Shown here: positions 27,725 through 32,519 of the stretch, piece after piece
Layout of the letters: the number at the start of each line of letters is the position of its first letter
Numbering within the stretch: the first letter of the stretch is position 1
DNA from: Salinirubellus salinus
Lineage (GTDB): Archaea; Halobacteriota; Halobacteria; Halobacteriales; Haloarculaceae
Reading direction: 5' to 3'
Assembly (NCBI RefSeq): GCF_025231485.1
Contig: NZ_CP104003.1
Span: 186,001 to 250,000, forward strand
Length of the DNA stretch: 64,000 nt
The notes under the pieces: generated by a model
Databases searched by the model: none
Seen by the model: the letters and a program-made list of their open reading frames with translations, nothing else
What the model was told of the DNA's origin: nothing
Made by a program: the position numbers and the translations under genes

Positions 27725-28501
27725 TCATCGCCAACTCGTCCACCCGCCGTCGACGACGAGCGACTCGCCGGTCACGTACGCCGCGAGGTCACTCGCGAGG
27801 AAGACCGCCGCGCCGGCGATGTCCTCGGGCTGGCCGTACCGGCCGAGGGGGACCAGCTGCGTGAACTGCTCGGCCTGCGCCGCGGTCGCTTCGGGGTCCG
27901 GCGATTCTCCCCCGATGGTCGTCTCGATCCCGCCGGGGTGGATTGCGTTGACCCGGATACCGTGCTCGCCCAGGGCGTGTGCGAGCGAGTAGGTCATCGT
28001 GGTCAACCCACCCTTGGACGTGGCGTACGTGGACCAGTTCCCGTTCCCGAACAGCCCCGCGACACTCGAGATGTTGATGATGGACCCACCCTCCCGGTCG
28101 AGGAGCCGTTCCGCGGCGACCTGGGCCCCGAAGTACGCGCCTTTCGTGTTGACGTCCAGCAGCTGCTGGTAGTCCTCTTCGGTCACCTCGAGGAAGCCCG
28201 TCATGTGCAAGATGCCGGCGTTGTTCACCCAGACGTCGAGGCCGCCGAACTCCTCGGCGGCATCCGCGGCCGCCACGAGGTCGTCGGTGTTCGTGACGTC
28301 GCAGTGCACGAACGTCGAGGCGGTGTCGGTCTCCTCCGCCAGCAGTTCGTGTGTCGGCCTTCCACCCTCCTTCGGCTCCTCGCGAACGTCCGCGACCACG
28401 ACCGCGGTCGCGCCGTGTTCCGCGAAGCCACGTGCGATTCCCCGCCCGATACCCGAACTACCACCCGTGACCACCGCGGTCTTTCCATCGAGGAGCGTCA
28501 T
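27725..28501 (-). CDS. short-chain dehydrogenase/reductase
   Basis: A 258-residue classical SDR. The cofactor motif TGGSSGIG is at residues 12-19, NNAG at 93-96, the catalytic Ser near 145, and Tyr159 and Lys163 (YATSK). The C-terminus LASDLAAYVTGESLVVDGGW is the usual SDR ending. It resembles glucose 1-dehydrogenase or 3-oxoacyl reductase-like members; substrate is open. It is on the strand of the transhydrogenase genes and 55 nt before pntAA, with an AT-rich CTTTTTATC element about 40 nt before its own start. It sits between a monooxygenase that uses NADPH and a transhydrogenase that makes it. Confidence 0.88.
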   Translation of the reverse strand: MTLLDGKTAVVTGGSSGIGRGIARGFAEHGATAVVVADVREEPKEGGRPTHELLAEETDTASTFVHCDVTNTDDLVAAADAAEEFGGLDVWVNNAGILHMTGFLEVTEEDYQQLLDVNTKGAYFGAQVAAERLLDREGGSIINISSVAGLFGNGNWSTYATSKGGLTTMTYSLAHALGEHGIRVNAIHPGGIETTIGGESPDPEATAAQAEQFTQLVPLGRYGQPEDIAGAAVFLASDLAAYVTGESLVVDGGWTSWR

Positions 28502-28660
28502 GTCTGATTCGACCAGTCCGAGAGATTCGTGTCATAACGATAAAAAGAGACGACGTGTCCCACGCGCTTGGAACGTCAACACGAAGAGACGTCTCGGCCG
28601 AGAGGCCCGGCCCCTCCGGCTCGGTCGCAGGGCCGTCGACACCTATCGCCGCTCGCGTGT

Positions 28661-30331
28661 CTAGTCCGCCGCCTCCGCCTGCTCCCGCCGCCCCAGCTCG
28701 AACCCGTCGTAGTCCTCGCGAGCCACGCGCTCGCAGATGCCGCGGTACATGTCCAGCCCGGCCGGGAACGGGGTGAAGATGGTCGGCTTGCCCGGGACGT
28801 TCGCCCCCCGGTACCACGACTCGGCCTCCGAGAACAGCATGTTCTCGGCCAGCATGTTCGTGTTCTGGACCCACTGCTCCTCCGAGTGTTCGGTCGCCTC
28901 GATGCGGTCGTAGCCGTGTTCGTCCAGGTAGCCGATGCAGTCGTCGATCCACTCGACGTGCTGTTCGATGGACATCGGCATGTTCGTCAGCACGCTGGGG
29001 CTCTGCGGGCCGGTGATGGTGAACAGGTTCGGGAAGCCGTGGATGCCCAGTCCGAGGTACGTCTTCGGGCCGTGCTGCCACTTCTCGGCCAGCGTCAGCC
29101 CGTCGCGCCCCTCGATGTCCATCGCGAGGAGCGCCCCGGTCATCGCGTCGAACCCGGTGGCGAAGACGACGACGTCGAGGTCGTACTCGGTGGCCGTCGT
29201 CCGGATGCCCGAGGGCGTGAACCGCTCGATGGGTTCGCCGTCGTCGCTCACGTCGACGAGGCTGACGTCGTCGCGGTTGTACGTCCCGTAGTAGTCGCCG
29301 TAGTCCATCGGTGGGCGCTTCGCGCCGTACGGGTGGTCGCTCGGGACGAGCTTCTCGGCCGTCTCGGGGTCGTCCACCTTCGCGCGTATCTTCTCGCGGA
29401 TGAACTCCGAGACCGTCTCGTTCACCTCGGCGTCGGTGAGGATGTGCTGGGGTTCGAACGCGTGGAGGAACCGGAACCCGCCCTGCTGCCAGCGGGCCTC
29501 GAGGACCTCGTGTATCTCCTCGTCGCTCAGGCGGCGCGAGTGGAGGTGGTCGACCTCGAACGGCATCCCGAGTCGCGAATCGCGGGCCCGCTCCCAGATA
29601 TCGTCGTAGTTCGCCTTGATGTCGGCGTACTCGTCGTCCTCGAGCGGTCGGTTCCGCGCGGGGACGGCGTAGTTCGGCGTCCGCTGGAAGACGGTGAGGT
29701 GCTCGGCCGTGCCACCTACCTCGGAGATGAACTGGATGCCGGTCGACCCGGTGCCGACGACGCCGACGCGCTTCCCCTCGAGATCGACGCCCCCATCGGG
29801 CCAGCGGGCCGTGTGGTACCCCTCGCCCTCGTAGGTCTCCAGCCCCGCGAAGTCGGGCTTCATCGGCTTCGAGAGACAGCCCACCGCGCTGACGAAGAAG
29901 CGCGTCGTGACGGTCTCACCGTCCGCGAGTTCGACCGTCCACGTGCCCGCGTCGTCGTCCCACGTCGCCCCCGCCACCTCCCGCTCGAACTCGACGTCCC
30001 GACGCAGGTCCAGTCGGTCCGCGGCGAAGTTCAGGTACTCCAGTATCTCCGGCTGTTCGGGGTAGCGCTCGGTCCACTCCCACTCCTCGTACAGGTCCTC
30101 GTCGAAGGAGTAGCAGTAGATGTGACTCTCGCTGTCACACCGAGCGCCGGGGTAGCGGTTCCAGTACCACGTCCCGCCGACCTCCTCGCCCTTCTCGAAC
30201 ACGCGGACCGAGAGGCCACGTTCGCGGAGCCTGTGCAGCATGTAGAGCCCGGAGAACCCCGCGCCGACGACGACGGCGTCAACGTCGACGTCGGTGGCTC
30301 CGCCGCTCGTGTGTGCGTCACTGTCGGACAC
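28661..30331 (-). CDS. flavin monooxygenase, Baeyer-Villiger type
   Basis: A 556-residue FAD- and NADPH-dependent monooxygenase. The FAD motif GAGFSG is at 23-28, GGTWYWNRYPG at 52-62, the class fingerprint YEGEGYHTARWP at 167-178 (a variant of FxGxxxHxxxWP), and the NADPH motif GTGSTG at 193-198. The order and spacing are those of Baeyer-Villiger monooxygenases, which turn ketones into esters or lactones, though heteroatom oxidation is possible. A GGTTTAAC element lies about 36 nt upstream of the ATG. It faces the DUF4188 gene across a 147-nt region that carries two palindromes. Confidence 0.88.
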   Translation of the reverse strand: MSDSDAHTSGGATDVDVDAVVVGAGFSGLYMLHRLRERGLSVRVFEKGEEVGGTWYWNRYPGARCDSESHIYCYSFDEDLYEEWEWTERYPEQPEILEYLNFAADRLDLRRDVEFEREVAGATWDDDAGTWTVELADGETVTTRFFVSAVGCLSKPMKPDFAGLETYEGEGYHTARWPDGGVDLEGKRVGVVGTGSTGIQFISEVGGTAEHLTVFQRTPNYAVPARNRPLEDDEYADIKANYDDIWERARDSRLGMPFEVDHLHSRRLSDEEIHEVLEARWQQGGFRFLHAFEPQHILTDAEVNETVSEFIREKIRAKVDDPETAEKLVPSDHPYGAKRPPMDYGDYYGTYNRDDVSLVDVSDDGEPIERFTPSGIRTTATEYDLDVVVFATGFDAMTGALLAMDIEGRDGLTLAEKWQHGPKTYLGLGIHGFPNLFTITGPQSPSVLTNMPMSIEQHVEWIDDCIGYLDEHGYDRIEATEHSEEQWVQNTNMLAENMLFSEAESWYRGANVPGKPTIFTPFPAGLDMYRGICERVAREDYDGFELGRREQAEAAD

Positions 30332-30432
30332 GGTCGCTCACTGGGCGTAGATTTCCCCACCCGCGGTTAAACCTGATGCCGTGCTGAACAGGGTGTCTCT
30401 CGAACAGGCTGGACAGCCCCTCCCGGAGCTGG

Positions 30433-30448
30433 CTGAGTGAATACTCAG
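30433..30448. promoter_or_regulatory. operator-like palindrome 1
   Basis: CTGAGT and ACTCAG form a perfect inverted repeat around GAAT. It shares the CTGAGT/ACTCAG arms with the palindrome at 30460-30475, and their centres are 27 nt apart. The TATA-like ATTTAT at 30449-30454 lies between the two. Confidence 0.75.
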
Positions 30449-30454
30449 ATTTAT
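30449..30454 (+). promoter_or_regulatory. TATA element of the DUF4188 gene
   Basis: ATTTAT, centred about 28 nt before the ATG at 30479, fits a leaderless start. It is flanked on both sides by the palindromes. Confidence 0.6.
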
Positions 30455-30459
30455 GCCGG

Positions 30460-30475
30460 CTGAGTGCTCACTCAG
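30460..30475. promoter_or_regulatory. operator-like palindrome 2
   Basis: CTGAGTG and CACTCAG form a perfect 7-nt inverted repeat around CT, immediately upstream of the DUF4188 ATG. With palindrome 1 it brackets the TATA element, the layout of a repressor site. The arm sequence is of the kind used by TetR-type dimers, and a TetR gene lies 0.9 kb away. Confidence 0.75.
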
Positions 30476-30478
30476 TCC

Positions 30479-30985
30479 ATGGGAGAGAACGACGACCGCG
30501 TGTCCGCGGCCCGCGACGAGGGCTTCGGCGTCTTCCTCGTCGGGATGCGCATCGACCGGCTGCGGGCGGTTCGCGGGGGGCTCCCCGTCGCCGCCGCGGC
30601 CCCGCGGATGGTGCGCGAGCAGGCGCCAGCGGGGTTGCTCGGGAGCCGGTACCTCCGCGACGGGTGGCAGGGCCCGACCATCGTCCAGTACTGGGCGTCC
30701 TTCGAGGCGCTGGAGCGGTACGTCGCCGCGCCCGGCACGGAACACCGACGCCGGTGGCAGCGGTTCGACGCACGGGCCGCCGAGAGCGACGCCATCGGCA
30801 TCTGGCACGAGACGTCCCTCGTCGAGTCCTACGAGACGGTGTACCGGCATGTGCCGCCCCACGGCCTCGGGGCGGCGGGGAGCGAACTCGTCCCGGCGGA
30901 CGCCGAGCGTGAGACCGCGGCCGGCCGACTCGGCCGCGACCCCGACGGTGCGCCGTTCACTCCCGACGGGGAGGTGTCGGGATGA
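30479..30985 (+). CDS. DUF4188 family protein
   Basis: A 168-residue soluble protein of the DUF4188 family, which has an alpha/beta ferredoxin-like (dimeric barrel) fold related to aldoxime dehydratase-like proteins. The N-terminal FGVFLVGMRIDRLR, IVQYWASFEALERY near residue 60, and GIWHETSLVESYETVY near 105 are the family landmarks. No activity is established. The ATG at 30479 is chosen by the TATA position and because the upstream residues are part of the operator DNA. It shares an ATGA overlap with the SHOCT gene. Confidence 0.82.
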   Translation: MGENDDRVSAARDEGFGVFLVGMRIDRLRAVRGGLPVAAAAPRMVREQAPAGLLGSRYLRDGWQGPTIVQYWASFEALERYVAAPGTEHRRRWQRFDARAAESDAIGIWHETSLVESYETVYRHVPPHGLGAAGSELVPADAERETAAGRLGRDPDGAPFTPDGEVSG

Positions 30986-31419
30986 ACCACCACGAGTCCG
31001 GCTGTCGGGAGCCGCCGACCCCCCTCGTCGGCGTCGTCGCGGGCGGCGTGACGCTCCTCGTGCTGGCGACGGCCTTCTCGCTGCACGCGCTCGACGTGTC
31101 GTGGGCGTGGGTGGTCTACCCGCTCGGGTTCGGCGGCGTCCTGCCGCTGGCGATGGGCGTGGCCGCCCGGGCCCGACGCGAGGAGGAGTCACGCCCGACG
31201 AGGCGGTCACCCGACGGGCACCACGGCGACACGCCGTCGGCGGCACTCGACGACCTCCGGCTGCGCTACGCGCGTGGCGAACTGGACGAGGCGGCGTTCG
31301 AGCGACGGCTCGAGCGCCTGCTGGCGTCGGAGGCGTCCGAAGGAGTGCCAGACCGCTACGACGAGGCGTACTCGGCAGGCGGCGAGACCCCCTCGGCCAG
31401 CACCACGCGGTCGAGGTAG
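30982..31419 (+). CDS. SHOCT domain membrane protein
   Basis: A 145-residue protein. Two hydrophobic helices (about 15-35 and 38-58) are followed by a charged linker and then a C-terminal SHOCT motif with LDDLRLRYARGELDEAAFE near 90-108. SHOCT domains are short oligomerisation elements. The ATG overlaps the DUF4188 stop, so the pair is coupled. The 3' end overlaps the convergent TetR gene by 64 bp, so the two genes share coding DNA on opposite strands. Confidence 0.7.
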   Translation: MNHHESGCREPPTPLVGVVAGGVTLLVLATAFSLHALDVSWAWVVYPLGFGGVLPLAMGVAARARREEESRPTRRSPDGHHGDTPSAALDDLRLRYARGELDEAAFERRLERLLASEASEGVPDRYDEAYSAGGETPSASTTRSR

Positions 31420-32000
31420 TCGAACAGCCGTTCCCTGACCCCTTCGCCCACGTCCCGCATCCCGAGTGCCTTCTCCGCGCCCGCGGTGCCGTCCGTCGTC
31501 GTCAGCAGGTACGCCGCGGTGGCCTCGGGGTCGACGTCGCGGAACACGCCGGCCTCGACGCCCTCCCGGAGCACGTCGGCGAGGTCGGTCAACACCGCCC
31601 GCTCGTAGGCGGTGAGTCGCTCGCGGAACCGTTCGTTGTGTCGGGCGTGCGCGAGCAACTCCATCACGGCGACGGCGATGCCGGTGTCCACCTCGTCCTC
31701 CGGGTCGCCGAGCAGGCGGTCGCAGGCGGCGTAGAGCCGTGTCACGGGGTCGGCGTCGGCGAGTTCGGCGAGGCGACGGGCGATGCGGTCCGTGGCGAAC
31801 TCGAGGAACGCGATGACGAGGGCCTCCTTGGTGTCGTAGTGGTAGAAGAAGAACGCCTCGCTCTTCTCGGACTCGGCGGCCACCTTCTTGGTGGTGAGGC
31901 CGGCGTAGCCGTGGCGGGCCAGCGCCCGCATCACCGCCTGGACGGCCTCCTCGCGGGCCGCGGGTGGCACCTCCGAGACGCCGTCGGCGTCGTCGCTCAT
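31356..32000 (-). CDS. TetR/AcrR family transcriptional regulator
   Basis: A 214-residue repressor-type regulator. The N-terminal helix-turn-helix is GYAGLTTKKVAAESEKSEAF followed by FFYHYDTKEALV near 38-70, the typical TetR DNA-binding domain. The rest is an all-helical ligand/dimerisation domain. TetR proteins often regulate neighbouring genes; the palindromes at 30433-30475 are the best candidate target. I saw no copy of that palindrome before its own start. The ATG at 32000 gives the normal N-terminus; the longer frame runs into the next gene. Confidence 0.87.
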   Translation of the reverse strand: MSDDADGVSEVPPAAREEAVQAVMRALARHGYAGLTTKKVAAESEKSEAFFFYHYDTKEALVIAFLEFATDRIARRLAELADADPVTRLYAACDRLLGDPEDEVDTGIAVAVMELLAHARHNERFRERLTAYERAVLTDLADVLREGVEAGVFRDVDPEATAAYLLTTTDGTAGAEKALGMRDVGEGVRERLFDYLDRVVLAEGVSPPAEYASS

Positions 32001-32099: not shown

Positions 32100-32519
32100 A
32101 TGGTTCACAGCACGACCCGCGAGTTCACGGAGGGTCTCGTCGCCACCTGCCGGACCGCGCTGGGTGACACCCTCCGCAGCGTCGTCCACTTCACCCCCGA
32201 CGGGTACGGGGTGCTCTACCTCCGGTCGGACCTCGGGGCCGACCCGCACGACGCCCACGAGGCCAAGCGCGCGCTCGTCGAGAACGAGCGACTCGGCTTC
32301 GACTCCCGTGAGACGTACAGCGACCTGCAGGAGGCGCCCGGCGTCGACGGGTCGCTCGGGGAGTACCTGTTCACCGTCCGCGCGTTCACCGACGGCTACC
32401 TCGCGCGGGTCCTGTACGGCGACCACGGCGTCCTCGTCACCACGGACTCGATGGACATCGACGCGTTCGAGGAGTTCGCCGTCGCCGCCCAGCGGACCCT
32501 CGAGGACCTCGCCGACTGA
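32100..32519 (+). CDS. haloarchaeal hypothetical, DUF7522-like
   Basis: A 139-residue soluble protein. The central SVVHFTPDGYGVLYLRSDLG and the C-terminal VLYGDHGVLVTTDSMDIDAFEEFA give a pattern of mixed alpha/beta structure. It resembles the haloarchaeal DUF7522 family, of unknown function. A GCTATACGC element lies about 18-24 nt upstream, so the promoter is probably its own. It is convergent with the globin-coupled transducer. Confidence 0.6.
   Translation: MVHSTTREFTEGLVATCRTALGDTLRSVVHFTPDGYGVLYLRSDLGADPHDAHEAKRALVENERLGFDSRETYSDLQEAPGVDGSLGEYLFTVRAFTDGYLARVLYGDHGVLVTTDSMDIDAFEEFAVAAQRTLEDLAD

What the first reader, a model, noticed from the sequence alone, without database searches (positions are those of the whole stretch)
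30433..30475. Two perfect palindromes straddle the TATA box of the DUF4188 gene
CTGAGT/ACTCAG inverted repeats at 30433-30448 and 30460-30475 have centres 27 nt apart and bracket ATTTAT, in the gap shared with a Baeyer-Villiger-type monooxygenase. A TetR regulator is encoded 0.9 kb away. The layout is that of a repressor that blocks TBP/TFB binding.
Basis: partly seen in the sequence, partly recalled or inferred. Interest (0 to 1): 0.65.

Follow-up and report, generated by a model that had tools for sequence, protein, structure and literature searches.

The report
Paired repressor sites around archaeal TATA box
Two matching palindromes hug the promoter of a small oxygenase-like gene in a salt-loving archaeon, and comparison with dozens of related genomes indicates that they are landing sites for the repressor encoded next door: an ordinary kind of gene switch, but one whose DNA code seems not to have been described for this family.

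Summary
CTGAGTGAATACTCAG (30433-30448) and CTGAGTGCTCACTCAG (30460-30475), dyads 27 nt apart, flank ATTTAT and end 3 nt before the ATG (30479) of a PF13826/DUF4188 gene. They are the only exact copies in the 4.38-Mb genome. The DUF4188-SHOCT-TetR cassette recurs in four other genomes of two other genera with both sites, the TATA box and the 27-nt spacing kept, while DNA just upstream has diverged. A matrix built only from these five promoters was run on 29 loci chosen solely for a relative of this TetR: 24 carry sites (55 hits in 104 kb), against 1 of 54 control loci (1 hit in 241 kb). In these relatives sites lie either directly upstream of a target gene's TATA box or just before the TetR gene's own ATG; the window promoter combines both positions. 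Best reading: a local TetR repressor binds as two dimers, one over BRE/TATA and one over the start region, and blocks transcription until an unknown ligand releases it. Binding, repression and ligand are untested. The BVMO gene is probably not part of the switch. A well-supported new member of a known kind.

The parts
30433..30448 (.). Operator site 1, CTGAGTGAATACTCAG, abutting the TATA box on its upstream side (over the expected BRE)
   Evidence: Exact inverted repeat; same position conserved in G027, G056, G413, G044; identical 16-mer upstream of the TATA box of a DUF2306 gene beside a TetR relative in L132
30449..30454 (+). TATA-box-like element ATTTAT
   Evidence: Sequence; TTTA(T/A) conserved in the five class-A promoters; start site inferred, not mapped
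30460..30475 (.). Operator site 2, CTGAGTGCTCACTCAG, between the TATA box and the ATG
   Evidence: Exact inverted repeat; conserved in the five class-A promoters; TetR relatives elsewhere have a site at the same distance from their own ATG
30479..30985 (+). DUF4188 / PF13826 gene, probable main target
   Evidence: PF13826 2.1e-25; homologues in 53 of 392 genomes of the order
30982..31419 (+). SHOCT-type gene, overlaps the end of DUF4188, probable operon partner
   Evidence: SHOCT 23.3 bits, below Pfam's cut-off of 27; neighbour of DUF4188 in all loci that also have the TetR
31356..32000 (-). TetR-family regulator, proposed repressor; convergent with and overlapping the SHOCT gene
   Evidence: TetR_N 29.5 bits and TetR_C_6 46.3 bits, above cut-off; 63-72% identical relatives beside the same genes in other genomes

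Best explanation
The two palindromes are operators for the TetR-family protein encoded at 31356-32000. Two dimers bind, one over the BRE/TATA edge (site 1) and one over the stretch between TATA box and start (site 2), and together they keep TBP, TFB and RNA polymerase off the promoter of the DUF4188-SHOCT operon. A small ligand, plausibly a substrate or product related to the oxygenase-like protein, would release the repressor. Shown here: the sites, their uniqueness in the genome, their conservation with fixed geometry, and the co-occurrence of the motif with relatives of this TetR. Inferred: physical binding, repression rather than activation, the leaderless transcript, the operon, and ligand induction.
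For: Only two exact copies in the genome, both here. Five genomes of three genera keep cassette, both sites, TATA box and 27-nt spacing; between genera sites are 69-88% identical, the 25 nt upstream 32-36%. A matrix from class-A sites finds hits in 24 of 29 loci fetched by TetR similarity alone, against 1 of 54 control loci. In those loci sites abut the target's TATA box or end a few nt before the TetR ATG. The HTH region is strongly conserved through the set. In haloarchaeal TrmB work, motifs downstream of the TATA box or over the BRE go with repression (PMC10817205).
Against: No binding or expression data. The TetR gene itself lacks a site in the window, unlike many relatives. Five of 29 TetR loci have no site above threshold (L113, L122, L133-L135). 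Site 1 is imperfect in the three g22 genomes (right half CACCTAG). FadRSa shows that an archaeal TetR bound near the start can leave TBP/TFB binding intact (PMC6449355).
Confidence: 0.82

Rival explanations
1. The TetR binds both sites but blocks a step after TBP/TFB binding (as FadRSa appears to do at its own promoter), or site 1 contributes to activation rather than occlusion.
For: FadRSa bound just downstream of the start stimulates TBP/TFB binding (PMC6449355). Site 2 lies close to the inferred start. For TrmB, motifs upstream of the TATA box can activate (PMC10817205).
Against: Site 1 directly abuts the TATA box and covers the expected BRE, the position tied to repression for TrmB; in the TetR relatives the target-side site also abuts the TATA box.
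Confidence: 0.13
2. The palindromes are operators for another regulator and the neighbouring TetR is unrelated to them.
For: No direct binding evidence links this TetR to the sites; haloarchaeal genomes carry other TetR proteins.
Against: Motif follows TetR relatives in loci chosen without reference to the motif, including loci with quite different target genes, DUF2306 and RPE65-type, and DUF4188 genes lacking this TetR lack the motif.
Confidence: 0.04
3. The repeats are chance, or act as RNA hairpins.
For: Short inverted repeats are common in this DNA (56 of the 6-4-6 type in the window, Markov mean 46).
Against: Same-arm pairs did not arise in simulations; conservation across three genera with fixed geometry; both repeats lie upstream of the inferred start, so would not be transcribed from this promoter.
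Confidence: 0.01

Closest known systems
FadRSa, TetR-family repressor of Sulfolobus acidocaldarius (PMC6449355)
   Same: Archaeal TetR protein, 16-bp dyad-symmetric operator, few genomic sites, local repressor of neighbouring genes
   Different: Most FadRSa sites are more than 130 bp from promoters and the one at its own gene is downstream of the start; different targets (fatty acid genes); no TATA-flanking pair reported in the passages read
TrmB of haloarchaea (PMC10817205)
   Same: Position of the motif relative to BRE/TATA goes with the direction of regulation; repressed genes have motifs over the BRE
   Different: Unrelated protein family and motif; mostly an activator with a wider regulon
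QacR-type TetR proteins (two dimers per operator; mentioned in PMC6449355)
   Same: More than one dimer per control region; the 20-bp elements of the relatives, CTGAGTGAGTNNTTACTCAG, have two overlapping registers of the core
   Different: In the window the two sites are separate, 27 nt between dyads, with the TATA box between them
PDB 3CRJ, listed as 'Transcription regulator'
   Same: Closest solved sequence to the TetR, E 6.4e-27 over residues 16-198
   Different: Listed without function; no operator or ligand known to me

Membership tests
TetR/AcrR family repressor-operator system | N-terminal TetR helix-turn-helix domain | tested here: met
   PF00440 29.5 bits, cut-off 24
TetR/AcrR family repressor-operator system | C-terminal ligand/dimerisation domain | tested here: met
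   PF13977 TetR_C_6 46.3 bits, cut-off 27
TetR/AcrR family repressor-operator system | Palindromic operator near its target or its own gene, associated with the regulator | tested here: met
   24 of 29 TetR-relative loci against 1 of 54 control loci; association only
TetR/AcrR family repressor-operator system | Protein binds the operator and a ligand releases it | not testable with these tools
   Needs gel shift or footprint and a ligand screen
Archaeal promoter-occlusion repressor | Site overlaps BRE/TATA or the start region | tested here: met
   Positions -46 to -31 and -19 to -4 relative to the ATG; the start itself is inferred, not mapped
Archaeal promoter-occlusion repressor | Competition with TBP/TFB or polymerase, repression in vivo | not testable with these tools
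   No experiment available
FadR-type or other named TetR subfamily (NCBIfam) | Score above the curated cut-off of a named TetR model | tested here: not met
   Best hits ScbR 32.5 of 150, BetI 31.2 of 201.3, FadR (Bacillus) 22.9 of 200 bits

The most novel reading that the evidence does not exclude
A haloarchaeal TetR subfamily with a shared TGAGTnnnnACTCA code has been rewired among targets (SHOCT/DUF4188, DUF2306, an RPE65-type carotenoid oxygenase) by placing sites at two fixed promoter positions, and in three genera both positions were combined on one promoter as a clamp around the TATA box. The common signal could be a lipophilic apocarotenoid- or terpenoid-like molecule.
Probability: 0.12. 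Interest if true: 0.65.

Novelty: new member of a known kind. Interest (0 to 1): 0.42.

Why it matters
Few archaeal TetR regulators have a known DNA code. This analysis gives a specific operator sequence, a natural contrast between one-site and two-site promoters, and relatives in Haloferax (L136, L137, with sites at both the TetR and the DUF2306 gene), a genus with tractable genetics. It would be a clean test of how a bacterial-type repressor blocks a TBP/TFB promoter, and a possible inducible switch for haloarchaea once the ligand is found.

Tried and rejected
The first DUF4188 homologue search used a wrong reading frame (30480) and found nothing; redone from 30479. A search of 392 genomes of the order for a strict double palindrome found only this genome with a convincing match: the g22 genomes have an imperfect site 1, and G027 was not in that sample. 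BVMO/SDR as co-regulated targets: rejected, because neither is near the cassette in the related loci and the BVMO's TATA-like element (30365-30372, minus strand, by eye) is about 60 nt from site 1. Exact single copies in G054 (L003) and G033 (L005), and the one-mismatch copy in the own genome (L093), have none of the cassette genes within the stretch held, so they look like chance. No structure prediction was run: it would not have changed the verdict on the DNA sites.

Full report
OBSERVATION. The second ends 3 nt before the ATG of the gene at 30479-30985, which matches PF13826 (DUF4188 / Monooxy_af470-like) at 2.1e-25. In the whole 4.38-Mb genome CTGAGTNNNNACTCAG occurs only at these two places, and loosening to two mismatches gives fewer matches than the reversed control (60 against 88). 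Same-arm palindrome pairs within 60 nt did not arise in 60 simulated windows.

SURROUNDINGS. Downstream are a small SHOCT-type gene (30982-31419) and, convergent, a TetR regulator (31356-32000, minus strand; TetR_N and TetR_C_6 above cut-off). Upstream and divergent are a flavin monooxygenase (BVMO-like, 28661-30331) and an SDR (27725-28501). If the transcript starts at or next to the ATG, as the TATA-to-ATG distance implies, site 1 covers about -46 to -31, including the expected BRE, and site 2 about -19 to -4.

CONSERVATION. The cassette DUF4188 > SHOCT > < TetR occurs in G027 and in G056, G413 and G044, two other genera of the same family. All keep two sites around a TTTA(T/A) box with dyads 27 nt apart, 3-4 nt before the ATG; in the three g22 genomes site 1 is imperfect. 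Between the three genera the sites are 69-88% identical and the 25 nt upstream 32-36%. BVMO and SDR were not found in these loci. In other genomes the order is SHOCT > DUF4188 with the TetR convergent, divergent or co-directional; these have a site such as CTGAGTGAGTGCTTACTCAGTAGTTTTAT, directly upstream of the TATA box of the first gene.

TEST OF THE TETR LINK. A 14-column symmetric matrix was built from class-A promoter sites only (window, G027, g22 genomes). It was applied to 29 loci fetched by similarity to the TetR protein alone. 24 of 29 loci have hits of 14 bits or more, 55 hits in 103,572 bp; 54 control loci (mostly DUF4188 genes without this TetR, plus pattern-match loci) have 1 hit in 241,200 bp. 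Cautions: many hits are overlapping registers of one 20-bp element, so hits outnumber distinct sites and the per-locus count is the safer figure; six of the 29 loci (L107, L108, L110, L123, L128, L130) are DUF4188 cassettes already looked at, and without them the count is 18 of 23; several loci come from close relatives of one genus (g65), so they are not independent events. The threshold of 14 was set after seeing the scan.

TWO POSITIONS. In the TetR-centred loci the sites either abut the TATA box of a target gene (a DUF2306 membrane protein in several, SHOCT-DUF4188 in others) or end a few nt before the TetR ATG. L112 has sites just before the TetR start and near the start of an RPE65-type gene. 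The window promoter carries both positions at once. Site 1 of the window is identical, all 16 bases, to the site upstream of the DUF2306 gene in L132. The HTH region is strongly conserved through the set. The TetR tree does not resolve whether the two-site promoter arose once.

MECHANISM. Most likely a local repressor with two dimers clamping the TATA box. Haloarchaeal TrmB work links motifs downstream of the TATA box, or over the BRE, to repression (PMC10817205). FadRSa warns that an archaeal TetR bound near the start can permit TBP/TFB binding and block later (PMC6449355). The window TetR gene shows no site of its own upstream, so it is probably not autoregulated through this motif. The ligand is unknown. 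The weak similarity of the DUF4188 protein to an aldoxime dehydratase (E 0.0012) and the family name hint at an oxygenase-like enzyme, nothing more.

KNOWN OR NEW. A TetR-operator pair is a known kind. Five text searches found no paper on this motif or regulator; they cover open-licence papers only, so absence is weak evidence. TetR relatives at about 52% identity lie on Haloferax plasmids, and in the two examined (H. gibbonsii, H. lucentense) the same two kinds of site are present. That the window is haloarchaeal rests on these relatives and on the group of genomes searched; no name was available.

VERDICT. Observation confirmed; interpretation supported by comparative sequence evidence, without experiment; the BVMO link is not supported.

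Noticed in passing
L014, L015, L016, L026, L031-L033, L036, L037, L040, L042, L043 (DUF4188 loci without this TetR): A different palindrome, CCAACATGTTGG or a close variant, lies roughly 40-150 nt upstream of the DUF4188 gene: perhaps the operator of another regulator that controls this gene in other families.
   Followed up: partly
G000:C1:2476280-2476747 (L039, L079): A second DUF4188 paralogue in the same genome, 44-46% identical, with no TGAGT-type palindrome in its upstream 150 nt.
   Followed up: partly
L091 / L123 (G339): The TetR relative is split over two reading frames, so probably frameshifted, while the operator upstream of SHOCT is intact.
   Followed up: no
L112 (G023): A TetR relative next to an RPE65-type carotenoid oxygenase gene, with high-scoring sites near both starts.
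   Followed up: partly
window 32100-32519; L062: A DUF7522 gene flanks the cassette in both the window and G027, but on opposite sides.
   Followed up: no
window 27725-30331: A BVMO-like monooxygenase and an SDR are divergent from the cassette here but were not found beside it in related genomes: possibly an unrelated insertion.
   Followed up: partly
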